DNA from: Pigmentiphaga sp. NML030171
GTDB taxonomy: Bacteria; Pseudomonadota; Gammaproteobacteria; Burkholderiales; Burkholderiaceae_B
DNA length: 64,000 nucleotides
Reading direction: 5' to 3'
Assembly: GCF_002188635.1 (NCBI RefSeq)
Contig: NZ_NINX01000039.1
Span: 1-64,000 of the forward strand
Of the stretch, positions 1 to 13,853 are shown piece after piece. The translations under genes and the position numbers were made by a program. Under the pieces are notes generated by a model. The model was given only the letters and a program-made list of their open reading frames with translations. It was not told the DNA's origin and did no database searches. How positions within the stretch are numbered: position 1 is the first letter of the stretch; the number at the start of each line of letters is the position of its first letter.

Positions 1-66
1 CTGTTCCGCCAGCCTCACCGCCTCGCGCTTGAACTCGTCCGTGAAATGTCTTCTGTTTCGTGCCAT
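1..66 (-). CDS. IS3/IS911-type transposase OrfA, 5' end only
   Basis: The reverse strand reads MARNRRHFTDEFKREAVRLA and then runs off the window edge. The F-T-x-E-F-K-R-E-A-V motif is the usual start of the small HTH subunit (OrfA) of IS3-family transposases, which binds the IS ends. Only 22 codons are visible, so the subgroup and the integrity of the element cannot be judged. It points away from the adjacent defence-type operon and marks an island edge. Confidence 0.7.
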   Translation of the reverse strand, partial: MARNRRHFTDEFKREAVRLAEQ

Positions 67-452
67 CGCTTCGCTCTCCAGGCATGATCATGCCATCTGA
101 TCTGTCCGGAGTAACGGGGCAAGCCCACACCTCACGCTGATTTGCCTAGCCCGTCTCATCCAGATGAGGCCGCAGAGAGCACGGCTGTGAAGAGCCAAGG
201 GTACTACGTTGCGTGTTTTCTCCGGGAAAAGACACGCCGACACCTTCTTCGCGTAAACCATCTACGACCTGCTGGCTTAAAGCACATGACCTTGCCATCG
301 AGCTGGTGCCACGAGCCTGCCGCAACGCATGGCGCCTGCCGAATCTATGGCTTTGCGCACATGAGATTCGAGGTTCATTTGGGTGGCTTGGATGGTAAAC
401 TTGGCCAGACTTTGGAAAACTTCGCCGTGCGACACCAAGCGAGCCACCTGAC
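67..452. other. Intergenic stretch between transposase and defence-type operon
   Basis: No convincing gene is visible in these ~390 bases. Overlapping ORFs exist on both strands but have no recognisable protein pattern. The stretch should contain the IS end and the promoter of the downstream operon. I see a palindrome near the transposase start (81-94) but no clear consensus promoter. Confidence 0.5.
81..94. repeat. Perfect 14-bp palindrome upstream of transposase
   Basis: GGCATGATCATGCC equals its own reverse complement. It lies 15 bases upstream of the OrfA start codon, where it could be a site for autoregulation or part of the IS terminal region. Function is inferred from position only. 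Confidence 0.45.
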
Positions 453-653
453 ATGAACCAACCCGATAGCGAAATTCTCACGCTGGACGAAGTGGCGGTC
501 TATCTCAAGGCAGGGAAGAAGACCGTGTACCGGTTGGCCCAGCAGGGGGAGATACCGGGGTTCAAGCTGGGCGGCACCTGGCGGTTTCGTCGCAGCGAGT
601 TGGATCGCTGGATTGCCGCACAGATAGCCGAGAAAACGCAGGACAAGACATGA
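453..653 (+). CDS. Excisionase-family helix-turn-helix protein
   Basis: This 66-residue protein has the compact MerR/excisionase-like winged HTH (HTH_17 type): T-L-D-E-V-A-x-Y-L at residues 10-18, then K-K-T-V-Y-R-L and G-x-W-R-F-R-R-S-E-L-D-R-W. Such proteins bind DNA as small adaptors or regulators and often precede the methyltransferase gene of restriction and defence operons. Its stop codon overlaps the start of a 21-codon ORF that leads into the methyltransferase gene, so it belongs to that transcript. A controller role is inferred. An excision role for the island is possible, but no integrase gene is visible in the window. Confidence 0.8.
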   Translation: MNQPDSEILTLDEVAVYLKAGKKTVYRLAQQGEIPGFKLGGTWRFRRSELDRWIAAQIAEKTQDKT

Positions 654-715
654 GCACCCCGCAGAACAGCAACAGCCAAGCGGCCTCGCTCAGAGGGAGG
701 GCTACACGCCCATGA
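650..715 (+). CDS. 21-codon coupling ORF between HTH and methyltransferase genes
   Basis: An ATG at 650 overlaps the HTH stop codon (ATGA) and opens a 21-codon frame. Its TGA at 713-715 in turn overlaps the methyltransferase ATG at 712. A strong purine-rich ribosome site (GAGGGAGGG, about 692-700) lies inside it. The double ATGA arrangement suggests that ribosomes are handed from one gene to the next. The peptide has no recognisable domain and may have no function of its own. Confidence 0.35.
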   Translation: MSTPQNSNSQAASLRGRATRP

Positions 716-3483
716 ACGCCGTAGAAATCGAACAAGCCATCACAGACCTGGCGGAGCAGCCGTTCGACAGCGCAGAGTTCCCCTATGCCTTCCTTGAGGC
801 GTTCGGCAACAAGGCGACGACCATCAAGCGCCTGCGCGCGGGGGCGTCGAACAAGTCCGACCTCGGTGGTGTTCTCCAGACCAGCAACATCCACATTCTG
901 ACCTGCGACGCAGGACGGGTTACACAGACGCTGGCCGCCCTCAAGGCCAGCCCGGCGACGGCCAAGGCCAAGGCGAAGTTCATCCTCGCCACGGACGGCA
1001 CGGACTTCGAGGCCGAAGACCTGACCAGCGGCGAGACCGTCGCCTGCGCCTTCAAAGACTTCCCGGATCATTTCGGCTTCTTCCTGCCGCTGGCGGGCAT
1101 CAGCACTGTCCGACAGATCAGTGAGAACGCCTTCGACATCCGGGCCACCAGCCGCCTAAACCGTCTGTATGTCGAACTGCTGAAGGACAACCCAGAATGG
1201 GGCTCGGCGGAGCGTCGGCACGACATGAACAAGCTCATGGCGCGGCTGATCTTCTGCTTCTTCGCCGAGGACACCGACATCTTCGTCGGCAGGGGCCGTT
1301 TCACCGAAACCATCGCTCAGATGAGCGCCAAAGACTCGTCCAACACGCACGACGTCATCGCCACGCTGTTCCGCACGATGAACACCAAGCGCGAGGACCG
1401 GGCCGCAGCCAAGGTTCCCCGATGGGCCGAAGACTTCCCATACGTCAACGGGCAGTTGTTCTCTGGTGGCGACGAGGTGCCGCGATTCAGCAAGATTGCC
1501 CGGTCCTATCTGCTGCATGTCGGCGGATTGGACTGGACCAAGATCAACCCCGACATCTTCGGTTCGATGATCCAGGCCGTCGCCGAAGACGAGGAGCGCG
1601 GCGAGCTGGGGATGCACTACACCAGTGTCCCCAACATCCTCAAGGTCCTCAATCCGCTGTTCCTCGACGACCTGCGGGAGAAGCTGGAGGAAGCGGATGA
1701 TAACGCCCGCATGTTGCTCAACCTGCGCAAACGCATTGCCAAGATCAGGGTCTTCGACCCGGCCTGCGGTTCGGGCAACTTCCTGGTCATCGCTTACAAG
1801 GAAATGCGCGCCATCGAGGCCGAGATCAACCGGCGGCGCGGCGAGCCGGATCGTGCATCAGAAATCCCGGTCACCAACTTTCGTGGGATCGAGCTACGCG
1901 ATTTCCCGGCGGAAATCGCCCGCCTTGCGCTGGTCATTGCTGAGTATCAGTGCGATGTGCTGTATCGGGGCCAGAAGCTGGCCCTGGCCGAGTTTCTGCC
2001 ACTGCGCAATGAGAACTGGATCACCTGCGGCAACGCGCTGCGGCTGGACTGGCTGAGCATTTGCCCGCCAGCTGGTACCGGAGTGAAGGTGCAGGCCGAT
2101 GATCTTTTTCGCACGCCGCTAGATCAAGCCGAGATCGACTTCGAGAACGAGGGGGGCGAGACGTATATCTGTGGCAATCCCCCCTATCTCGGCAGTCGAT
2201 GGAGAGACAAGGAGCAGCAAGACGACTTGGCGGCCTTATTCTCTGGTCGCGCGCCTAGTTTCAAGGACTTGGACTATGTCGCCGCTTGGTACTTGAAGGC
2301 TGCAGATTATCTTCACGCCGTACCCGATTGTTGCTGTGCGTTTGTCGCCACTAAGTCGATTTGTCAAGGCGAGCAAGTCGCCATGCTATGGCCTCTGATC
2401 TTTGGTCAAGGCCTGGAAATATCCTTCGCTTACCGACCCTTTCACTGGAGCAATCTGGCGGCCGCAAACGCGGGCGTGACTGTAGTTATTGTTGGCATCG
2501 CATCCGCGCGTTCGAGCAAGAAAACTCTTTTTGAGGGTGATGAAAAGCGCGTCGTAGACAGCATCGGACCTTACCTGATTCCAGTCGGAAACATCATCGT
2601 TGAAAAGGCTCCTAGACCCTTAAATGGCTTGCCTCGGATGGACTACGGAAACAAGCCTACAGATGGCGGTAACCTGATATTGGACAGGGCCACGAAGGAG
2701 GGCCTTGTTGCGGCACGCCCCGAAGCTGCTCGGTTTATAAGAGCGTATGTCGGCTCCACTGAGTTCATCAATGGCGTGCCACGCTTCTGCCTGTGGGTTG
2801 AAGATGAGGAAGTTAATGACGCACGCTTAGTGCCCGAAATTTGTGAGCGGTTTGAGAACGTACGAAAGCTCAGAGCCGAAAGTAAGGGGCAGCAGGCGAA
2901 CGCGAATGCAGACACGCCCCATCGGTTTGTCTTCGCGCCTCATCGATCTGGGAGCGCGCTGATTGTTCCTCGCGTTTCTTCCGAACGCCGCCCGTACCTG
3001 CCTGTAGGGATTGTCGATGATGCGACAGTAATTTCTGATCGGGCTGCGGTGATCTACAGGCCTGAAACGTGGTTGCTCGGTATCGTGGCTAGCCGTATGC
3101 ATTTGGTCTGGATTGCTACTGTATGCGTCCGCATGAGAATGGACTTTTCTTATTCAAACACTCTCGGCTGGCACACATTCCCAGTGCCGACACTGACCGA
3201 GAAAAACAAGGCCGATCTCACGCGCTGCGCGGAGGACATCCTGCTGGCGCGGGAGCATCACTTCCCCGCGACCATCGCGGACCTGTACGACCCCGAGAAC
3301 ATGCCCGCTGACCTGCGTGCCGCCCATGAGCGCAACGACGAAGTGCTGGAGCGCATCTACATCGGTCGGCGCTTCAAGAACGACACTGAGCGGCTGGAAA
3401 AGCTGTTTGACCTCTATACCAAGATGACCGCTTCGGCTGCACCGGCCAAGGGCAAGAAGCGCAAAGCGGGAGCCAACGCATGA
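712..3483 (+). CDS. MmeI-type class I SAM-dependent DNA methyltransferase (nuclease motif absent)
   Basis: This 923-residue protein has the order of MmeI-like enzymes: an N-terminal region, a helical spacer, the methyltransferase core and a target-recognition region. SAM motif I, F-D-P-A-C-G-S-G-N-F, is near residues 348-357. Catalytic motif IV, G-N-P-P-Y, near 488-492, indicates N6-adenine methylation. In MmeI a D-x9-E-x-K nuclease site sits near residue 70-82. Here the matching stretch reads S-D-L-G-G-V-L-Q-T-S-N-I-H-I, with no E-x-K, so cleavage by this subunit is unlikely. The helicase gene overlaps its end by four bases. Bases ~2190-3190, covering the recognition region, look AT-richer than the flanks, which suggests specificity swapping. 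The likely role is marking self DNA for the downstream helicase and nuclease. Confidence 0.85.
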   Translation: MNAVEIEQAITDLAEQPFDSAEFPYAFLEAFGNKATTIKRLRAGASNKSDLGGVLQTSNIHILTCDAGRVTQTLAALKASPATAKAKAKFILATDGTDFEAEDLTSGETVACAFKDFPDHFGFFLPLAGISTVRQISENAFDIRATSRLNRLYVELLKDNPEWGSAERRHDMNKLMARLIFCFFAEDTDIFVGRGRFTETIAQMSAKDSSNTHDVIATLFRTMNTKREDRAAAKVPRWAEDFPYVNGQLFSGGDEVPRFSKIARSYLLHVGGLDWTKINPDIFGSMIQAVAEDEERGELGMHYTSVPNILKVLNPLFLDDLREKLEEADDNARMLLNLRKRIAKIRVFDPACGSGNFLVIAYKEMRAIEAEINRRRGEPDRASEIPVTNFRGIELRDFPAEIARLALVIAEYQCDVLYRGQKLALAEFLPLRNENWITCGNALRLDWLSICPPAGTGVKVQADDLFRTPLDQAEIDFENEGGETYICGNPPYLGSRWRDKEQQDDLAALFSGRAPSFKDLDYVAAWYLKAADYLHAVPDCCCAFVATKSICQGEQVAMLWPLIFGQGLEISFAYRPFHWSNLAAANAGVTVVIVGIASARSSKKTLFEGDEKRVVDSIGPYLIPVGNIIVEKAPRPLNGLPRMDYGNKPTDGGNLILDRATKEGLVAARPEAARFIRAYVGSTEFINGVPRFCLWVEDEEVNDARLVPEICERFENVRKLRAESKGQQANANADTPHRFVFAPHRSGSALIVPRVSSERRPYLPVGIVDDATVISDRAAVIYRPETWLLGIVASRMHLVWIATVCVRMRMDFSYSNTLGWHTFPVPTLTEKNKADLTRCAEDILLAREHHFPATIADLYDPENMPADLRAAHERNDEVLERIYIGRRFKNDTERLEKLFDLYTKMTASAAPAKGKKRKAGANA

Positions 3484-5534
3484 GCGACAAGATCAAGTCC
3501 GTACCGTCCGTTTCCGTCACCTACGCCCGCAACGGTGCGTCGACCAAAGCCAATGCGCTTGGGATGCGACCCATGCAGGAGCGGGCCTACGAGAAGCGGG
3601 GCGAGCAATACCTGCTCATCAAGTCGCCGCCCGCATCGGGCAAGAGCCGTGCGCTGATGTTCGTGGCACTCGACAAGCTCACGAACCAAGGCTTGAAGCA
3701 GGCCATCATCGTTGTGCCGGAGAGGTCCATCGGTGCCAGCTTCAACGACGAACCGCTGTCGAAGTACGGCTTCTGGGCGGACTGGCAGGTCGAACCCAAG
3801 TGGAACCTGTGCAATGCGCCAGGCAACGACAACGGCGGCAAGGTCAAGTCGCTGGGCGCATTCCTCGAAGGCGAGGACAAGGTGCTGGTCTGCACCCATG
3901 CGACCTTCCGCTTCGCGGTCGATGCCTACGGCGTGGAGGCGTTCGACGACCGATTGATCGCGGTCGATGAGTTCCACCACGTTTCGGCCAACCCGGACAA
4001 CAAGCTCGGCTTGCACCTGGGGCAGTTCTTCGCGCGGGGCAAGACGCACATTGTCGCCATGACCGGCTCCTACTTCCGTGGCGACGCCGAGGCCGTGCTC
4101 GCGCCGCAGGATGAGTCGAAGTTCGATACCGTCACCTACACCTACTACGAGCAGCTCAACGGCTACGAGTACCTCAAGCAACTCGATATCGGCTATTTCT
4201 TCTACAGCGGGCCTTACGTTGATGACATCCTTAATGTCCTCGATCCCGCCGAGAAGACCATCATCCACATCCCCAACGTCAATTCGCGTGAAAGCACGAA
4301 GGACAAGATGCGTGAGGTGGAGCACATCATCGAGGCGCTGGGCGAATGGCAAGGCATCGACCCTGCGACCGGCTTCCAGCGTGTCAAGCGCCCCGATGGC
4401 CGCGTGCTGCGGATCGCTGATCTCGTCGATGACGATCCTGCCAAGCGTGACCGCGTGTCCGCCGCACTCAAAGACCCGGCGCAGAAGAACAACCGGGACC
4501 ATGTGGACATCATCATCGCGCTGGGCATGGCGAAGGAAGGCTTCGACTGGATTTGGTGCGAACACGCCCTGACCGTGGGTTACCGCGCCAGCCTGACCGA
4601 GATTGTGCAGATCATCGGCCGAGCTACCCGCGACGCGCCCGGCAAGACCCGCGCGAGATTCACCAACCTGATCGCCGAGCCGGATGCAGCCGAGGAAGCT
4701 GTCACCGAGGCCGTCAACGATACGTTGAAGGCCATCGCGGCAAGCCTGCTGATGGAGCAGGTTCTTGCTCCGCGCTTCGAGTTCAAGCCCAAGAACCCCG
4801 ACAGTGGCCCGGCGCCGGGCTTTAACTACGGCGAGGGTGGCTATGACCCGGACCGCTGCAATGTCGGTGTCAATGAGCAGACAGGGGCGTACCAAATCGA
4901 GATCAAGGGCCTCGCCGAGCCGAAGAGCAAGGAGGCGGCGCGAATCTGTCAGGAAGACTTGAACGAAGTTATCGCGGCCTTCGTGCAGGACAAGCCCACC
5001 ATCGAGCGCGGCCTGTTCGATGAGGAGCTGGTGCCCGAGGAGCTGACGCAGGTTCGCATGGGCAAGATCATCAAGGACAAGTATCCCGAGCTTGACGCCG
5101 AAGATCAGGAGGCCGTGCGCCAGCACGCCATCGCCGCCCTCAACCTCACGCAGCAGGCCAAGCGGCTTGTCACCGAAGGCGAGAGCGATGGGTTGCCGAA
5201 CACCGCCCTGATCGACGGCGTGCGCCGCTTCGCGATGGACGTGCGCGAGTTGGACATCGACCTGATCGACCGCATCAACCCCTTCGGGGAAGCCTACGCC
5301 ATCCTTGCCAAGACCATGAGCGATGACAGCTTGAAGCAGGTCGCGGCGGCCATCTCGGCCAAGCGCACGAGCCTGACGCCGGACGAGGCGAAGGAGATGG
5401 CCGTGCGCGCCGTCCAGTTCAAGAAGGAGCGCGGACGCATTCCTGCACTTGATTCCCAGGATGCCTGGGAGCGACGCATGGCCGAAGGCGCGGCCGCCTT
5501 TATGCGATTCAAGGCGGAGGGGCGCTATGAGTAA
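3480..5534 (+). CDS. SF2 DEAD/DEAH-type helicase of the defence-type operon
   Basis: This 684-residue protein carries superfamily 2 motifs in order: Walker A S-P-P-A-S-G-K-S near residues 48-56, motif II V-D-E-F-H-H near 162-167, motif III M-T-G-S, and motif VI Q-I-I-G-R-A-T-R near 377-384. These motifs power ATP-dependent movement on nucleic acid. The ~300 residues after the motor match no family I can name and may contact partner proteins. It starts inside the methyltransferase stop codon (ATGA) and ends overlapping the GIY-YIG gene by eight bases, so stoichiometric expression is likely. By analogy with Type I and Type III restriction or DISARM, it may move along unmodified DNA. Confidence 0.85.
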   Translation: MSDKIKSVPSVSVTYARNGASTKANALGMRPMQERAYEKRGEQYLLIKSPPASGKSRALMFVALDKLTNQGLKQAIIVVPERSIGASFNDEPLSKYGFWADWQVEPKWNLCNAPGNDNGGKVKSLGAFLEGEDKVLVCTHATFRFAVDAYGVEAFDDRLIAVDEFHHVSANPDNKLGLHLGQFFARGKTHIVAMTGSYFRGDAEAVLAPQDESKFDTVTYTYYEQLNGYEYLKQLDIGYFFYSGPYVDDILNVLDPAEKTIIHIPNVNSRESTKDKMREVEHIIEALGEWQGIDPATGFQRVKRPDGRVLRIADLVDDDPAKRDRVSAALKDPAQKNNRDHVDIIIALGMAKEGFDWIWCEHALTVGYRASLTEIVQIIGRATRDAPGKTRARFTNLIAEPDAAEEAVTEAVNDTLKAIAASLLMEQVLAPRFEFKPKNPDSGPAPGFNYGEGGYDPDRCNVGVNEQTGAYQIEIKGLAEPKSKEAARICQEDLNEVIAAFVQDKPTIERGLFDEELVPEELTQVRMGKIIKDKYPELDAEDQEAVRQHAIAALNLTQQAKRLVTEGESDGLPNTALIDGVRRFAMDVRELDIDLIDRINPFGEAYAILAKTMSDDSLKQVAAAISAKRTSLTPDEAKEMAVRAVQFKKERGRIPALDSQDAWERRMAEGAAAFMRFKAEGRYE

Positions 5535-6738
5535 CTCCGATCTTGACGAACTCGCTGCGGAGCTTGCCGAGTTCGCACCGCCCGAGGCGAAGGCCGGACG
5601 GCCGGCCAGTGAGGAGCGCGTCATCGCGGGCTTCGAGGAAATCCAACGCTTCACCGAGAAGCACGGGCGTGCGCCGCAGCATGGTGAGGATCGCGACATA
5701 TTCGAGCGCCTCTACGCCGTGCGCCTGGACCGCTTGCGTGCGCTCCCGGACTGCCGCGCCCTGCTGGAGCCGCTGGACCATCAGGGCTTGCTTGCCGGGG
5801 CGCCTACCGTTGCCGCTTCGGCAGATGAAGCCATCGACATCGACGACCTGGCCGCCGAGCTGGCGGGCGTAGCCGAGGCGGACGACATCACGGTCCTACG
5901 CCATGTCCGTACCAGCGCCGAAAAGCGCGCCGCCGAGGAGGTCGCGGATCGCAAGCCCTGCGAGGACTTCGAGACTTTCCGGCCCTTGTTCGAGCGCGTG
6001 CAAGCGGAAGTCAAAACCGGTATGCGCCAGTCCCAGCCCATCGAAGCGGGCCGCCGTGCGATTGAAGCCGGGGACTTTTTCGTACTCGATGGCCTTACTC
6101 TCTACGTCGCTGAGGTCGGCGAGCCGCTGAAGACGACCGCAGGGGAAGTAGATCGCCGCCTACGCCTCATCTTTTCCAACGGCACCGAAAGCAATCTGCT
6201 GCTGCGCTCGCTCCAACGTGCGTTCTACAACGACCCCGCCGCGCGGCGGCTGGCCTCGCCCGAGAGCGGGCAACTCTCCTTCGGCGGGGAGCTTGAAGCC
6301 GATGATGTCGAAAGCGGCACGATCTACGTCCTGCGCTCCCTCTCCGATCATCCCTATGTCGCGCAGCACCGCGAGATCATCCACAAGGTCGGCGTGACCG
6401 GGGGCAGGGTGGAGACGCGCATCGCCAATGCCGAGCACGACTCCACCTACCTGCTGGCGAAGGTCGAAGTGGTGGCGACCTACAAGCTCGCGGGCATCAA
6501 CCGCACCCGGATGGAGAACCTGTTCCACAGGCTGTTCGCCCCCGCGCGGTTGAACATCACCATCAATGACCGCTTCGGTCATCCTGTGCAGCCTGAGGAA
6601 TGGTTCCTAGTGCCACTTCATGTGATCGACGAGGCGGTTCAGCGCATTCGAGATGGATCGATCACCGAGTTTATCTATGACCCGCAGACCGCTCGACTGG
6701 TGGGCTACGCGCGGATTCACTATAAGGATGAGCCATGA
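5527..6738 (+). CDS. GIY-YIG nuclease family protein (T5orf172-like C-terminus)
   Basis: The chosen start is the ATG inside the last codons of the helicase gene, giving 403 residues. An acidic N-terminal region of about 260 residues has no clear domain. From ~264 comes a GIY-YIG-type core: G-T-I-Y-V-L-R, then I-H-K-V-G-V-T-G-G, a following Arg, and a Glu in M-E-N-L-F-H-R-L-F. This is the T5orf172/Mug113 pattern, in which Tyr, Arg and Glu support single-metal DNA cleavage. It is the only recognisable nuclease fold of the operon apart from the PHP domain next door, so it is the leading candidate for the cutting subunit. Its stop overlaps the next start (ATGA). Confidence 0.8.
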   Translation: MSNSDLDELAAELAEFAPPEAKAGRPASEERVIAGFEEIQRFTEKHGRAPQHGEDRDIFERLYAVRLDRLRALPDCRALLEPLDHQGLLAGAPTVAASADEAIDIDDLAAELAGVAEADDITVLRHVRTSAEKRAAEEVADRKPCEDFETFRPLFERVQAEVKTGMRQSQPIEAGRRAIEAGDFFVLDGLTLYVAEVGEPLKTTAGEVDRRLRLIFSNGTESNLLLRSLQRAFYNDPAARRLASPESGQLSFGGELEADDVESGTIYVLRSLSDHPYVAQHREIIHKVGVTGGRVETRIANAEHDSTYLLAKVEVVATYKLAGINRTRMENLFHRLFAPARLNITINDRFGHPVQPEEWFLVPLHVIDEAVQRIRDGSITEFIYDPQTARLVGYARIHYKDEP

Positions 6739-9404
6739 TGGAAAGTCTGCGACCGAAGCAGTCAGAGGCTCGATCCATGGTCTTTGCAGAAGGGGCGCAG
6801 TGGGTCCGTGCTGACTTTCATCTGCATACCCGAGCGGACCGAGAATTCAAGTTCACGGGCGATGACAACTTCTACAACAGCAACTATGTGGATGCGTTGG
6901 AGAAAGCGGACATCCGATTGGGCGTCATCACCAACCACAACAAGTTCGACTTCGAAGAATTCAAAGCACTGCGCAAGATGGCCCAGAAGAAGGGTATTGC
7001 GCTGCTGCCAGGCGTTGAGTTGTCGGTCAATGACGGGGCTAATGGCATCCACACGCTTGTTGTGTTCTCCGACGAATGGATCGATGAACACAATTACATC
7101 AACCCCTTTCTGACCAGCGCATTCGAAGGTAAAACGCCCGCGCAGTACGAGCAGGAGAACGGGCGCACTTCATGGTCGCTTCTGGAGACCATCAAGAAGC
7201 TGGAAGGCTATCACCGGGACTTCTTCCTTGTCTTCGCCCATGTCGAAGCCCCGAGTGGCCTGTGGGCGGAGCTGGATGGCGGCCGGCTTACTGAGTTGGG
7301 GCAAAACGAGTTCTTCCGACGCAGAACGCTGGCTTTTCAGAAGGTACGCACGCACGACGGCGCAGGCAAAGACAAACCCTGCCGCACCAAGATTCAAAGC
7401 TGGCTACAGAGCTGGTACCCCGCCGAACTGGAAGGCAGCGACCCCAAGAGTGTCGATGAAATCGGTCGAGGCAAATCGAGCTACCTGAAGCTGGGCGAAC
7501 TGTCCTTCGAGGCGGTCAAGTTTGCCTTGAGCGATCCCGCTGGGCGGGTAGCCATGGAGCCGCCCAAACATCAAGCGTCGCACATCCGCAGCATCCGCTT
7601 CGACGGCGGCATCCTCGACGGGCAAGTGCTGCATTTCTCTTCCGAACTCAACACGTTGATCGGCATCCGGGGCAGCGGCAAATCATCCATCCTGGAGGCA
7701 GTACGCTACGCCCTCGACATTCCACGCGGCGAGAAGGCGCAGGACACCAAGTACAAGGATGAGTTGATCCGCCATACCCTTGGCAGCGGCGGCAAGGTGA
7801 CGCTGACAGCATGTGACGTGTACGGACAGGAATTCACCATCTCCCGCATCTTCCGCGAAGCCCCGAATGTCTATTTGGGCGGCAAGTTGCAACCCGGCGT
7901 GTCGATTCGGGAGACCGTACTGCGCCGTCCGATCTACTTCGGCCAGAAGGACCTTTCTAGCACCGGCGAAGGCTTCGAGACCGATCTGGTGGAAAAGCTG
8001 GTTGGCGAGAAGCTGCGTGTGCTGCGTGACGAAATAGAGGTTCAACGCCAGCGCGTGCGTGACGCTGCTCAGCGCTGGCTCAAGCTCAACAACACGGCCG
8101 AACTCAAGCGCGACTTCGAGACCCAACTAAATGATGCCAACTTCCGTCTGACCAAGTTCGCGGAGCACGGTGTCGCCGATAAGCTCCAAAAGCGACTTGG
8201 CTTCCAGCAGGACGCCACAGCGCTCGCGCGCATGATGGAGCGGGCAGACAGCTTCATCCTCGCTCTAGGAAGTCTGATTGCCGAGCATGAGGACGAGCTG
8301 CGGAACGCAACGAGCTACGTTTCCAAGCAGAACCCGGATTTCTTCACGGCCTACTACGCCGAGTTCTCCAACCTCGTTGCCAAGGTCGATCAGCTCAAGC
8401 AGATCGAGCGAGAAGCGAACGTCATTGCAGCTCGCCTCAAGACCAAACAGGGCGAATTTGAAGGCGCAAGCAGGAGCCTTCAGGAGGAGTTCGCACAAGT
8501 CGAGCGCCAACTGGCTCAGGAGCTCAAGCAAACCGGCATGACTGCCATCCAGCCGGACGACTTCCTGGCCCAGCAGCAGCGCAAAACCAAGGCGGAGCAA
8601 ATGCTTCAGGCGCTGGCCAAGCAGGAATCACAGCAGACCAGCATCCGCGACGCGCTGTTTGCCGAGATCGACAAACTCAATGAACTATGGCTGAGCGAGT
8701 TCAACACCATCAAGGTAGAGCTGGACCGCGTGAACGCTGGCCACACCGCCCTGCAGATCGAAGCGGACTACAAGGGCGACAAGGAAGCCGCCATCAGCTT
8801 CATGCAACAGCTCTTCAAGGGCAGCAACATCCGCGAAACCACGCTGCGCGCAGTGATGGAGGACTATGCCGATTTCGGCGGCCTCCTGCGTGCCCTGCCG
8901 GCAGCCTTGGCGAAGGCCGGCAGCACCCCCGAGGTCTTCGAAAAGACCTTCATGCAGAACCTGACCGAGTTCGTCACTTGGCAGGTGCCCAACCGCTTCG
9001 TCATCCGCTATCGCGGCAAAGAGTTGAAGCACCACTCTCTCGGGCAGCGCGCTTCGGCGCTGTTGCTGTACGTGCTCAGCCAACGCCAGAACGACGTGAT
9101 CATCATCGACCAACCGGAAGACGATCTGGACAACCAGACCATCTACGACGATGTGATCAAGCTGCTACGGGAAATGAAGCCTCACGCCCAATTCATCTTC
9201 GCCACCCACAACGCCAACTTCCCGGTGCTGGGTGACGCGGAACAGGTGCACGCCTGCCAATACCAGGACGAGAAGGTCGCCACGCGAAGCGGCAGCATCG
9301 ACGCCCGCCCGGTGCAGGACGCCATCATCAACATCATGGAAGGAGGCCAGGAAGCCTTCAACCGTCGCAAAGAGGTCTACAACCTATGGAAACCACAGAG
9401 CTGA
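6735..9404 (+). CDS. TrlF-type protein: PHP phosphoesterase fused to ABC/SMC-like ATPase
   Basis: This 889-residue protein begins with a PHP domain: D-F-H-L-H-T near residue 27, N-H-N, P-G-V-E-L-S and F-A-H-V-E supply the metal-binding His, Asp and Glu residues. An ATPase follows, with Walker A G-I-R-G-S-G-K-S-S near 310-318, a long charged coiled-coil-like stretch at about 420-660, then Walker B I-I-I-D-Q-P-E-D-D near 788-796 and a T-H-N switch region. This is the layout of TrlF-family proteins. PHP-ATPase proteins have been reported as single-gene phage defences under the name Ppl, although I cannot test homology to those here. It overlaps the next gene by 19 bases. Confidence 0.85.
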   Translation: MMESLRPKQSEARSMVFAEGAQWVRADFHLHTRADREFKFTGDDNFYNSNYVDALEKADIRLGVITNHNKFDFEEFKALRKMAQKKGIALLPGVELSVNDGANGIHTLVVFSDEWIDEHNYINPFLTSAFEGKTPAQYEQENGRTSWSLLETIKKLEGYHRDFFLVFAHVEAPSGLWAELDGGRLTELGQNEFFRRRTLAFQKVRTHDGAGKDKPCRTKIQSWLQSWYPAELEGSDPKSVDEIGRGKSSYLKLGELSFEAVKFALSDPAGRVAMEPPKHQASHIRSIRFDGGILDGQVLHFSSELNTLIGIRGSGKSSILEAVRYALDIPRGEKAQDTKYKDELIRHTLGSGGKVTLTACDVYGQEFTISRIFREAPNVYLGGKLQPGVSIRETVLRRPIYFGQKDLSSTGEGFETDLVEKLVGEKLRVLRDEIEVQRQRVRDAAQRWLKLNNTAELKRDFETQLNDANFRLTKFAEHGVADKLQKRLGFQQDATALARMMERADSFILALGSLIAEHEDELRNATSYVSKQNPDFFTAYYAEFSNLVAKVDQLKQIEREANVIAARLKTKQGEFEGASRSLQEEFAQVERQLAQELKQTGMTAIQPDDFLAQQQRKTKAEQMLQALAKQESQQTSIRDALFAEIDKLNELWLSEFNTIKVELDRVNAGHTALQIEADYKGDKEAAISFMQQLFKGSNIRETTLRAVMEDYADFGGLLRALPAALAKAGSTPEVFEKTFMQNLTEFVTWQVPNRFVIRYRGKELKHHSLGQRASALLLYVLSQRQNDVIIIDQPEDDLDNQTIYDDVIKLLREMKPHAQFIFATHNANFPVLGDAEQVHACQYQDEKVATRSGSIDARPVQDAIINIMEGGQEAFNRRKEVYNLWKPQS

Positions 9405-10561
9405 TCGACCTGCTCAGCCGGGGCGAGGACAGTCGGCAGCAGTTCAAGACGGACATGAACAATGCCGACGCCTTGGCAGCAGAGATCGTTGCCTTCAGCA
9501 ACACCGTTGGTGGTCGCATCTTCATTGGGGTGAACGACGACGGTTCGGTGCGCGGCCTATCCGGCGCCGACGTTGCTCGTCTCAATATGCTCATCGCCAA
9601 CGTGGCCTCACAGGTCGTGCGTCCCGCCGTGAACCCGCTCACGGAAAACGTGCCCCACCCGGCAGGCACGGTGCTGGTGCTCTCCATCGCTGAAGGCGTC
9701 AACAAGCCCTACATGGACAAGAACGGCGCGATTTGGGTGAAGAACGGCTCGGACAAGCGCCGTGCTACCTCGCGCGAGGAATTGCAGCGCCTGTTCCAGC
9801 AGGCGGGCTTGGTGCACGCCGACGAAACGCCCGTAGCGGGCTTGAGCGCGGGCGATGTGGACCTGCCCTATTTTGAAACCTTCTTCGAGCAGCAATTCGG
9901 TGAGCCGCTCGCCCAGCATAACCAGCCGCTGCCGCAGTTGCTGACCAACATGAACCTGATGAATCAGGGACAGCTCAACGTGGCGGGCGGTCTGCTGTTT
10001 GCCAAATCACCGCACTACGCGCTACCCGCCTTCATCGTCAAGGCCGTCGCCTTTGTTGGCACCCAGATTGAGGACGAACGCTACATCGACAGCCGCGACA
10101 TCGCCGGCAAGCTGGCCGACGTGTTCCAGCAGACGCTGGGCTTTATCATCGCTAACACCCGCGCCGCGCAGGGCGAGCAGGGCTTCAACTCCCAGGGGCA
10201 GCCTGAGATTCCCCGCATCGTCTGGGAAGAACTGGTCGCCAACGCCCTCATTCACCGCGACTACTTCGTCAGCGCGCCGATTCGCGTACTGGTCTTCGCT
10301 GATCGTGTCGAGATCATCAGCCCTGGCCACCTGCCCAACAACCTGACTATCGAGAACATCAAGGCCGGCAACTCCAATATGCGCAACCCCATCCTGGCGT
10401 CCTTTGCCGCCAAGCTCCTGCCTTATCGCGGATTGGGTAGCGGGCTGCTGCGCTCACTAAGGGCATGGCCGCAGATCGAACTTATCGATGATCGGGCCGG
10501 CAACCTGTTCAAGGCCATCGTGGCGCGTCCCAGTGCGCTGGAGGCGGCCGGAGGATCTTGA
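9386..10561 (+). CDS. AlbA_2 (Schlafen-like) domain plus HATPase protein
   Basis: This 391-residue protein has an N-terminal AlbA_2/Schlafen-type domain: E-D-S-R-Q-Q-F-K near residues 14-21, then A-E-I-V-A-F-S-N-T-V-G-G-R-I-F-I-G-V. Its C-terminal half resembles the HATPase_c_4 module seen in proteins annotated as RecG-like or ATP-binding: E-L-V-A-N-A-L-I-H-R-D-Y and R-G-L-G-S-G-L. The family is common in mobile islands and is thought to bind nucleic acid and ATP, but its biochemistry is poorly defined. Its start lies 19 bases inside the TrlF gene, tying it to the operon. It could be a regulator or a nucleic-acid sensor. Confidence 0.75.
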   Translation: METTELIDLLSRGEDSRQQFKTDMNNADALAAEIVAFSNTVGGRIFIGVNDDGSVRGLSGADVARLNMLIANVASQVVRPAVNPLTENVPHPAGTVLVLSIAEGVNKPYMDKNGAIWVKNGSDKRRATSREELQRLFQQAGLVHADETPVAGLSAGDVDLPYFETFFEQQFGEPLAQHNQPLPQLLTNMNLMNQGQLNVAGGLLFAKSPHYALPAFIVKAVAFVGTQIEDERYIDSRDIAGKLADVFQQTLGFIIANTRAAQGEQGFNSQGQPEIPRIVWEELVANALIHRDYFVSAPIRVLVFADRVEIISPGHLPNNLTIENIKAGNSNMRNPILASFAAKLLPYRGLGSGLLRSLRAWPQIELIDDRAGNLFKAIVARPSALEAAGGS

Positions 10562-10623
10562 TTGATCGGTTGGGTAGTAGGCGGGCGGCTTCTGGCTTTT
10601 TGGAAAGTCACTATGGTGTCAGT

Positions 10624-10821
10624 ATGAAACAGCACGACGAGAACGAACCCTTCTTCATCACGGAGGACATGGCAGCCGAGATGGCTGCTGCCGGCTACGA
10701 GTTCGAGCCTCCCGGCCATGCCAGAACGAAGAGCGTCCGCGACCTGTACGGATGGCAGCCCGGGGAGACCCTGGAGGAGGCCATTGCCCGTCACCAGCGA
10801 AGGCAGTGTTCATCCTCTTGA
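10624..10821 (+). CDS. Small acidic protein of unknown function at operon end
   Basis: This is a 65-residue ORF starting at M-K-Q-H-D-E-N-E-P-F-F, with a motif S-V-R-D-L-Y-G-W-Q-P-G-E-T-L-E-E-A-I and a basic tail. An upstream in-frame start at 10558 overlaps the preceding stop codon, but the extra residues look non-coding. I do not recognise the family. The length and composition fit a small regulator, or an antitoxin-like or DNA-mimic partner. Position after the AlbA_2 gene and before a terminator suggests it is the last gene of the operon. Confidence 0.55.
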   Translation: MKQHDENEPFFITEDMAAEMAAAGYEFEPPGHARTKSVRDLYGWQPGETLEEAIARHQRRQCSSS

Positions 10822-10971
10822 TCTGAGCATGGCATTGTTCATGGCATTAGTTGAAGTTTTGATTGTAAGTTATTGATGTTTAACATGTTTCTATGATTAT
10901 AGATGATCGAGTGGGAGTGAGATCGGGTCCGGCATAAAACCGATACCAGATAGCACGAAACCATCCCTAAG

Positions 10972-10993
10972 CCCGCGTAACTGCGGGTTTTTT
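10972..10993 (+). terminator. Rho-independent terminator closing the island operon
   Basis: A CCCGC stem and GCGGG partner enclose a six-base loop, followed by six T residues. It lies 150 bases after the last small gene in an AT-rich stretch and 33 bases before the HXXEE gene. The change in base composition around 10,830-10,960 suggests this is also near the island boundary. Confidence 0.75.
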
Positions 10994-12875: not shown

Positions 12876-13853
12876 CTATTTCATCCCGAACCAGGCGGGA
12901 TCCGCCGCCAAGGCCACCGCCCCGATCAACGACACAACCGTGGCCAGCAGCACCGGCCCGTCAAAAGATTCCAGCTCCGGATTGAGCACTCGCGCAAGCC
13001 ACACTCGCATGACGAGCGACGTCCGCTGTATCGGTATGACGACCGACGCGGGCGCGATGGCAAGCGCCATGTAGACAAAGATCTGCGAGGCCGCGGCGGT
13101 CACGCCCGCGACCGAATACCAACCGAGCGTAGGGCGCGACATGGTCAGCGACCGGCCCAGGCCGCCCTGGCAGATGACGATGGCCACCACGCCCACGGTC
13201 GCGGCGGTATAGGCCACGGCGGCGCCGGCCAGCCCGCCAGCCATCCCGTTCCCCTCCACCATGGCGTGCCGGACCAGGATGGGACTGGAGCCATACGCCA
13301 GCGCCGAGAAGGTGGCGAACAGATAGCCTTCGCCCAGCTTGGGTTGGAAACCCGCGGCGGATCTGGCCTCCACCTGGATCGATTCTGCTTCGGACGCGCG
13401 CCTGAACGGACGGAAGGATGCCGGCGCATGGGCTCGCGCAGCCAGCATCGGCGCCGCAATGATGAGCGCAATGCCGACGATATGCAGCGTGGTCAGGCGC
13501 TCGCCCAGCAGGACTATGGCCAGCACCAGCGTGATCAGCACGCTGGTCTGCTGCACGGGCCCGACCAGCACGGTGCCCATGGCGCGCGTCGCGCGGTAGT
13601 TGCAATAGCGGCCGAAGCCGAAGTGCAGCAGGCCGGCAGCGGAGAAGAGCAGTGTGGAGCGCAGCGGAAACGCTTGCAGATGGCCGGTCCCGCCGACGGC
13701 CAGCACGGCGATCCAGACCATTGCCGTACCAAGCAGCAGCGTGACGACCATGGCCTGGGACAGCGTTCCGCCGACCACGCCGCGGCGCAGCGTGGCGTTG
13801 TTCGCGGCGAAGGTAAACGCCGCGAGGAGGGCGAGCACGGTCGGCAGGATCAT
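12876..13853 (-). CDS. DMT-superfamily (EamA-like) transporter
   Basis: This 325-residue protein has about ten membrane segments arranged as two repeats, as in EamA/DMT exporters and importers of small metabolites. Conserved features include the N-terminal L-L-A-A-F-T-F-A-A-N-N-A and a V-G-P-V-Q-Q-T-S-V-L-I segment. The substrate cannot be predicted. Its ATG overlaps the stop of the upstream diguanylate cyclase by four bases, so the two are co-translated. It meets the DUF2938 gene tail to tail. Confidence 0.8.
   Translation of the reverse strand: MILPTVLALLAAFTFAANNATLRRGVVGGTLSQAMVVTLLLGTAMVWIAVLAVGGTGHLQAFPLRSTLLFSAAGLLHFGFGRYCNYRATRAMGTVLVGPVQQTSVLITLVLAIVLLGERLTTLHIVGIALIIAAPMLAARAHAPASFRPFRRASEAESIQVEARSAAGFQPKLGEGYLFATFSALAYGSSPILVRHAMVEGNGMAGGLAGAAVAYTAATVGVVAIVICQGGLGRSLTMSRPTLGWYSVAGVTAAASQIFVYMALAIAPASVVIPIQRTSLVMRVWLARVLNPELESFDGPVLLATVVSLIGAVALAADPAWFGMK

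What the first reader, a model, noticed from the sequence alone, without database searches (positions are those of the whole stretch)
453..10821. Candidate multi-gene anti-phage defence system: HTH, MmeI-like methyltransferase, SF2 helicase, GIY-YIG nuclease, TrlF PHP-ATPase, AlbA_2-HATPase, small protein
Seen: seven genes in one direction, joined by overlaps of 4, 8, 4 and 19 bases and a coupling ORF, beside an IS fragment and ended by a terminator. Known: methyltransferase-helicase-nuclease sets restrict phage (Type I/III, BREX, DISARM), PHP-ATPase proteins (Ppl) have been reported as defences, and a helicase-methyltransferase-ATPase type (Hma) has been proposed. Inference: this particular set, with a nuclease-less MmeI-like methyltransferase and both a GIY-YIG and a PHP protein, may be a distinct system.
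Basis: partly seen in the sequence, partly recalled or inferred. Interest (0 to 1): 0.87.

Follow-up and report, generated by a model that had tools for sequence, protein, structure and literature searches.

The report
Restriction operon carrying TrlF-TrlG backup
A mobile bacterial restriction operon of an already described kind has picked up a portable gene pair, known from another bacterium for stopping growth when it warms up, that probably serves as a second line of defence against viruses.

Summary
The seven genes are real and overlap as described, but they are not one new machine. The core (nuclease-less MmeI-like methyltransferase, SF2 helicase, T5orf172/GIY-YIG protein) is the published DnmA-YeeB-YeeC cluster (PMC9973331). 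TrlF + AlbA_2/HATPase is a separate cassette: it has no counterpart at the same chromosomal spot in Pigmentiphaga kullae, occurs in 2 of 80 core loci, and elsewhere lies inside Type I, Eco57I-type, DUF1156 or N6/N4-methylase operons or without them. It matches trlF-trlG of the Photorhabdus temperature restriction locus, where trlG mutations or operon deletion relieve growth arrest (PMC7554251). A plasmid copy of that locus has an RptR-type regulator and hsdM remnants, so it looks like a stripped Type I operon. The position after the GIY gene is a variable slot: 27 of 76 loci carry a close co-directional gene, several of them known defence types. The island sits at the guaA 3' end. Best reading: restriction core plus growth-arresting backup pair; the coupling is untested. 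New variant of a known kind.

The parts
1..130 (.). end of a repeated IS-like element; marks the assembly break
   Evidence: 99-100% copies at the ends of contigs C39, C36, C33, C24, C2; 73-75% like DNA under transposase annotations
453..653 (+). HTH_17 excisionase-like regulator (MAD1-like)
   Evidence: PF12728 68.6 bits; NF047737 82.4 bits, cut-off 80; 100% identical in P. kullae and G733
712..3483 (+). DnmA-like (MmeI-type) adenine methyltransferase without nuclease motif
   Evidence: five MmeI domains; MmeI 5hr4; no D-x9-E-x-K in residues 1-170, NPPY at 489; target-recognition domain exchanged
3480..5534 (+). YeeB-like SF2 helicase
   Evidence: DEAD/ResIII; DEFH and QIIGRATR motifs
5527..6738 (+). 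YeeC-like T5orf172/GIY-YIG protein
   Evidence: PF10544, PF13455
6735..9404 (+). TrlF: SMC/Rad50-like ATPase with putative PHP N-terminus
   Evidence: NF045780 584 bits; model pLDDT 80.8, fold matches SMC, JetABC, Rad50, RecF
9386..10561 (+). TrlG-like protein: Schlafen AlbA_2 + GHKL ATPase
   Evidence: PF04326, PF13749; model pLDDT 84.6, fold matches 3lmm and Schlafens; 59.6% to the Yersinia ruckeri plasmid protein
10624..10821 (+). small ORF, function unknown
   Evidence: no family; relatives in L039 directly after a GIY gene and in L152
6684..10828 (+). stretch without counterpart in P. kullae (cassette)
10906..10920 (+). repeat of the guaA 3' end; right border of the element
   Evidence: homology to L152 ends at 10920; empty site in G007

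Best explanation
A mobile DnmA-YeeB-YeeC restriction-modification operon carrying a TrlF-TrlG cassette in its variable effector slot. Proposed working: DnmA methylates host DNA at a site set by its exchangeable recognition domain; on unmethylated invading DNA it is the recognition part for the YeeB motor and the YeeC GIY-YIG nuclease, which cut it. TrlF-TrlG is a second layer: TrlF (SMC-like ATPase) senses failure or inhibition of the first layer, or a DNA intermediate of it, and with TrlG (Schlafen fold + GHKL ATPase) arrests growth, as PrrC and PARIS guard other restriction systems. Shown here: anatomy, operon structure, guaA integration, specificity exchange, purifying selection, exchange of the cassette between restriction operons. 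Published for relatives: operon-dependent growth arrest that needs TrlG (PMC7554251). Inferred: restriction by this core, the second-layer role, its trigger and its target.
For: Core: PMC9973331 reports that deletions of dnmA and yeeB homologues in Vibrio crassostreae raise sensitivity to some phages. Recognition domain 38-48% identical while N-terminal, spacer and C-terminal parts are 92-99% in 5 of 6 comparisons. Cassette: methyltransferase/RM genes near 9 of 12 class-sampled TrlF-AlbA_2 pairs, of four unrelated kinds. Growth arrest at 36 C relieved by trlG point mutations or operon deletion and restored by the operon on a plasmid (PMC7554251). A Yersinia ruckeri plasmid copy has an RptR relative (E 2e-34) and hsdM remnants beside the pair, and RptR precedes a Type I operon that holds the pair in L156: the stand-alone locus looks like a restriction operon that lost its core and misfires. 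Same slot filled by GajA-, SduA-, RT-, SIR2-, PDC-S06-like genes in other loci. TrlF tree nests the window group among Type I-linked rows.
Against: In B. subtilis the homologous core gave no phage protection and was called a relic (PMC9973331). No trlF mutation was found in the Photorhabdus screen, so TrlF may not be needed for arrest, and that phenotype was tied to temperature, not phage. The second acidic position of the Schlafen site (residues recalled) is Q in 12 of 18 aligned proteins including this one, so RNA cleavage is doubtful. TrlF occurs without AlbA_2 in 8 of 20 sampled genomes, and three pairs show no RM gene nearby (L131, L136, L178). No background rate for RM genes was computed. 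No experiment on these genes.
Confidence: 0.5

Rival explanations
1. Independent neighbours: TrlF-TrlG is a complete defence of its own that only shares the operon, as TgvAB inside a Type I operon acts without HsdR activity.
For: The pair is found without RM genes in L121, L131, L136 and L178 (no hsd match in these at E <= 0.01). TgvAB precedent in PMC11411939 (passages).
Against: 9 of 12 sampled pairs lie in operons with methyltransferase/RM genes of several kinds; the L127 pair carries hsdM remnants.
Confidence: 0.3
2. One integrated machine: TrlF and TrlG are needed subunits of the DnmA-YeeBC restriction complex.
For: Overlapping genes and a complete second copy of the set in L152.
Against: Core without TrlF in 78 of 80 loci and at the same spot in P. 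kullae; pair without this core elsewhere.
Confidence: 0.08
3. Relic or regulatory locus: the methyltransferase acts as an orphan enzyme in gene regulation and the pair as a temperature or stress response, without a role against phage.
For: B. subtilis findings in PMC9973331 and the temperature phenotype in PMC7554251.
Against: All genes intact under purifying selection; exchange of the recognition domain; known defence families in the same slot.
Confidence: 0.12

Closest known systems
DnmA-YeeB-YeeC cluster (B. subtilis; Vibrio crassostreae homologues)
   Same: MmeI-like methyltransferase without nuclease motif, helicase, T5orf172 protein, same order
   Different: HTH gene in front, TrlF-TrlG and a small ORF behind, guaA island
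Temperature restriction locus trlR-trlF-trlG of Photorhabdus laumondii (PMC7554251, passages and part 1 of the discussion seen)
   Same: TrlF family ATPase followed by an AlbA_2 + HATPase_c_4 protein with the same domain layout
   Different: no TrlR/RptR relative found in the window; joined to a restriction core; temperature effect not known here
[quoted passage not shown]
   Same: very probably the same pair by annotation names and order; L126 and L156 show that order
   Different: host operon is Type I there, DnmA-YeeBC here
PrrC/EcoprrI and PARIS restriction guardians (PMC3874165 and PMC12707154, passages)
   Same: growth-arresting effector encoded with a restriction system
   Different: no sequence kinship tested beyond weak AriA hits of TrlF (37.5 bits); gating not shown
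Backup effectors of BREX-related systems (PMC12839542, passages and section 35 part 1)
   Same: Schlafen proteins with a small kinase-like ATPase as proposed backups
   Different: those passages do not name TrlF or this core

Membership tests
DnmA-YeeB-YeeC | MmeI-like methyltransferase lacking the nuclease motif | tested here: met
   (motif form recalled)
DnmA-YeeB-YeeC | SF2 helicase and T5orf172/GIY-YIG gene next downstream, in this order | tested here: met
DnmA-YeeB-YeeC | adenine methylation at a non-palindromic site | not testable with these tools
   needs a methylome
Temperature restriction locus | trlF-trlG gene pair | tested here: met
   NF045780; AlbA_2 + HATPase_c_4; 51.7% and 59.6% to the Yersinia ruckeri plasmid pair
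Temperature restriction locus | trlR regulator (79 aa) | tested here: not met
   tblastn of the Yersinia TrlR finds only L127 and L156 among all loci and the window
Temperature restriction locus | growth arrest on warming | not testable with these tools
   needs experiment
Type IIL/IIG enzyme (MmeI) | nuclease in the same polypeptide | tested here: not met
   no D-x9-E-x-K in residues 1-170, although PADLOC calls it REase_MTase_IIG at 952.8 bits
Ppl | NF042955 over its cut-off | tested here: not met
   152.3 bits, cut-off 1000
MADS | MAD1-like HTH | tested here: met
   82.4 bits, cut-off 80
MADS | other MAD proteins | tested here: not met
   only partial mad2 (38.3 bits) and mad3 (54.4 bits) hits in the rows shown
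BREX / DISARM | PglZ and BrxC, or DrmA and DrmB (recalled) | tested here: not met
   no such hits in the rows shown; PglX and DrmMI hits are to the methyltransferase
Hma | Hma protein models | tested here: inconclusive
   no Hma row, but only the best 25 rows are shown for two proteins and the library's Hma content was not checked
PrrC-type restriction guardian | effector held silent by the RM complex and released by anti-restriction | not testable with these tools
   needs experiment

The most novel reading that the evidence does not exclude
TrlF-TrlG is a general guardian of methylation-based defence: it plugs into unrelated systems (Type I, Eco57I-type, DUF1156, N6/N4 methylase, DnmA-YeeBC), reads a signal common to them and arrests growth when they fail. 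The Photorhabdus temperature restriction locus would then be such a guardian left behind after its restriction core was lost, misfiring on warming, and the DnmA-YeeBC operon has a standing slot for such effectors.
Probability: 0.38. Interest if true: 0.82.

Novelty: new variant of a known kind. Interest (0 to 1): 0.56.

Why it matters
It would tie together three separate stories: the seemingly inert DnmA-YeeBC methyltransferase cluster, the RptR-controlled Type I operons with an unexplained gene pair, and the temperature-dependent growth arrest of Photorhabdus. One module that responds to the failure of several biochemically different systems would point to a shared signal. The genus offers a natural series at one chromosomal spot: empty (G007), core only (P. 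kullae), core + cassette (this genome), so what the cassette adds can be tested directly.

Tried and rejected
Seven-gene unit as one system: rejected because its parts separate. BREX, DISARM, MADS, Ppl and an MmeI-type enzyme: see the membership table. Viral carriage of TrlF: one scan of viral contigs with close-relative patterns confirmed no relative; 7 phage records match, best 40% identity. Papers: 10 searches, of which I saw listings. In the listings and passages seen I met no paper that names the DnmA-YeeBC effector slot or TrlF-TrlG in that operon; this covers the open library and these terms only. Three papers were followed only through others or not held: the V. crassostreae study (tried), the ABC-ATPase classification, the Payne preprint (seen as a citation).

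Counts and rows dropped: L158-L160 (ATPase part only) were left out. A looser sample of 14 loci (window, L131-L137, L152-L157) gives AlbA_2 adjacent in 13 and RM genes in 11; I rely on the sample by family model instead (20 of 369 genomes), which gives 12 of 20 with AlbA_2. Within it L181 lacks the PHP stretch and L183 is split in two. L183 is called Eco57I-type from 40-76% BLAST matches of three ORF pieces to the L132 enzyme; Pfam on one piece found nothing. Not counted as RM: a 27% partial N6/N4 match about 7 kb from the pair in L131 and N6/N4-like pieces about 6.5 kb from TrlF in L181. Neighbours of L136 and L178 were judged from ORF lists and BLAST with my query set, not by a family search of every ORF. 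One search failed on wrong coordinates and was redone.
Full report
Observation. The seven ORFs, their strand, overlaps and domains are as described. The GIY gene most likely starts at 5527, not at the TTG. The IS fragment is confined to about 1-130, and the terminator at 10969-10990 belongs to the chromosomal flank.

The core is known. The methyltransferase has all five MmeI Pfam domains and aligns to MmeI 5hr4 from its residue 88 on, but residues 1-170 hold no MmeI-type nuclease motif (motif recalled). With the SF2 helicase and the T5orf172 protein it matches DnmA-YeeB-YeeC. PMC9973331 (passages; section 8) describes the cluster, its conservation near defence genes, the lack of phage protection in B. 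subtilis, and a Vibrio crassostreae study (not held) in which deletions of dnmA and yeeB raised sensitivity to some phages.

Specificity exchange. Against L152, L011, L012, L013 and L016 the methyltransferase is 96-98% identical in its N-terminal part, 92-99% in the spacer and 93-98% at the C-terminus, but 69-74% in the methylase domain and 38-48% in the recognition domain; L023, the sixth comparison, is 93% there.

The cassette is separate. Of 80 core loci, 2 match TrlF: L023 with AlbA_2, and L026, whose contig ends inside TrlF. Genome G733 (L152), another family of the order, holds the whole set: HTH 100, methyltransferase 76, helicase 98, GIY 96, TrlF 99, AlbA_2 97, small ORF 83%.

Where the pair lives otherwise. 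On Klebsiella plasmids and an E. coli chromosome it sits between hsdR and hsdS. 38 of 5426 E. coli genomes hold a place covering at least 80% of the pair; the one I read has it in a Tn7-like element beside yhiM. In Vibrio cidicii (L126) and G872 (L156) it sits between hsdS and hsdR. L121 (Pseudomonas plasmid) shows the pair without RM genes. L128-L130 hold TrlF without an AlbA_2 match.

The pair has a published phenotype. PMC7554251 (passages; part 1 of the discussion) describes trlR-trlF-trlG of Photorhabdus laumondii: trlG encodes an AlbA_2 + HATPase_c_4 protein, trlF a protein annotated as histidinol phosphatase, trlR a 79-residue regulator. Point mutations in trlG or deletion of the operon allow growth at 36 C and the operon on a plasmid restores the arrest; no trlF mutations were found. 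The paper notes the same genes on Yersinia ruckeri plasmid pYR3, with small genes annotated as Type I subunit M between them. In the sister plasmid L127 I find that the 79-residue ORF before trlF is a relative of RptR (9r2z, E 2e-34) and that three pieces covering residues 1-24, 44-124 and 125-153 of an HsdM lie between it and trlF. RptR is the repressor of Type I operons described in PMC12255303 (passages; [quoted passage not shown] In L156 an RptR relative (92% to the Yersinia one) precedes hsdM of the operon that contains the pair. So the temperature restriction locus looks like a Type I operon that has lost its restriction core. No RptR relative is in the window. Ser16, one of the mutated trlG positions, is the same residue in 18 of 18 of my TrlG-like sequences; for the other positions the numbering could not be transferred.

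Sample by family model. NF045780 is over its cut-off in 20 of 369 genomes of the class and in 0 of 14 control genomes. AlbA_2 is adjacent in 12 of 20: window, L131-L137, L175, L177, L178, L183. Nine of these 12 have methyltransferase or RM genes in the neighbourhood: window; L132, L175, L183 (Eco57I-type); L133, L135, L177 (DUF1156, two with DUF499); L134 (Type I); L137 (N6/N4). Three do not (L131, L136, L178). Of the 8 without AlbA_2, two have possible RM neighbours: L173 (N6/N4 methylase about 0.9 kb away) and L174 (Type III-like Res and RhuM). Fisher p is 0.0014 if these two are not counted and 0.065 if they are, so an extra link through AlbA_2 is only suggestive. No background rate was computed.

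The slot. Behind the GIY gene, 24 of 76 usable loci have a same-strand ORF of at least 100 residues within 120 bp; three more (L041, L057, L062) have one that overlaps the GIY end, making 27. Representatives: GajA-like (L012, 898 bits), SduA (L042), RT_UG19 (L066), Drt3a (L084), SIR2 (L086), PDC-S06 with Pfam AAA_13 (L032; cluster of 3); HNH_2 (L024); a HATPase match below its cut-off (L067; cluster of 5); but also a HemN-like radical-SAM gene (L074) and a ParB-like match below cut-off (L078). PADLOC found nothing in L067, L024, L065. Between methyltransferase and helicase, 42 of 77 loci with both have a gap over 250 bp, measured between best match ends; representatives are RhuM, YhcG, AlbA_2-HATPase, BrnT, a weak PLD-like match, and five without Pfam match. 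Of 8 plasmid loci read for comparison, the next listed gene is close and co-directional in 4 (L163, L164, L167 with a HEPN protein, L168), opposite in 3 (L161, L165, L166) and a distant transposase in L162 (that gene table is incomplete).

History. In a TrlF tree of 22 rows the window, L152 and L026 form a group (99/97); with L153, L121 and L155 they form a set (100/100) whose neighbours L154 and L122 are Type I-linked (midpoint root). This favours a move from a Type I operon into DnmA-YeeBC, once or twice. dN/dS is 0.04-0.21 where dS could be estimated, 0 for the HTH, no internal stops; pairs with L126 are saturated.

Integration site. ATCGAGTGGGAGTGA at 10906-10920 encodes the guaA end IEWE-stop. 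The guaA end lies left of the core in L016, L013, L014, L020 and L026, and the repeat occurs again beyond the operon in L016, L014 and, with one change, L013. Homology to L152 stops at 10920. G007 shows guaA directly followed by the window's right flank, the empty site. This genome's own guaA is on another contig (C20). No integrase was identified.

Proteins. TrlF: ATPase residues and several His/Asp/Glu of the N-terminal part are invariant in 21 sequences; model pLDDT 80.8, the 50 rows shown are SMC, JetABC, Rad50, RecF and RecN type. The PHP label is weak by sequence; the label also rests on distant similarity to Ppl and a metallohydrolase model below cut-off. TrlG: model pLDDT 84.6, matches to 3lmm, Schlafens and kinase ATPase domains. 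E14 is invariant; the second acidic position of the Schlafen site (recalled) is Q in 12 of 18, including the window and the Yersinia protein, and E in 6 distant ones. Since such a protein stops growth in Photorhabdus, the effect need not be RNA cleavage.

Known or not. Defences embedded in restriction operons are established: PrrC (PMC3874165, passages; PMC12707154, passages), TgvAB (PMC11411939, passages), backup effectors including Schlafens in BREX-related systems (PMC12839542, passages and section 35 part 1). What I did not meet in the listings and passages seen is the spread of TrlF-TrlG over several kinds of methylation systems, its place in DnmA-YeeBC, the effector slot of that operon, or the reading of the temperature locus as a restriction operon without its core.

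Noticed in passing
window 10906-10920; L016:3294-3308, 5972-5986, 13456-13470; L147: The guaA 3' end is an integration site with tandem repeat-bounded elements; P. kullae has a second small element between guaA and the restriction operon; no integrase found.
   Followed up: partly
L002:4929, L003/L016:13386, L023:13136, L064:10969: TTTTCATGGCAT motif exactly 70 bp before the guaA-type repeat at the right end of these islands (L003 and L016 are one genome).
   Followed up: partly
L127:7285-8000: RptR relative and hsdM remnants beside TrlF-TrlG on a Yersinia ruckeri plasmid.
   Followed up: yes
L023:5183-6016 and five relatives; L015:9222-10004 and three; L034:9147-10004 and two: Three recurrent clusters without Pfam match (about 277, 260, 285 aa) between the methyltransferase and the helicase.
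   Followed up: no
G026 (L004, L010 and a further place): One genome with three near full-length helicase copies and a fragment.
   Followed up: no
L174:2976-14351: TrlF without AlbA_2 in a row with two genes that look SbcC/SbcD-like by eye (no family search), a Type III-like Res protein and RhuM.
   Followed up: partly
L128:1-10613: Vibrio tubiashii plasmid: TrlF last in a row with a RecB-like nuclease downstream of brxL.
   Followed up: no
L039:13311-13514: Relative (43%) of the window's small ORF directly after a GIY gene without TrlF, so it may belong to the slot or the island end.
   Followed up: partly
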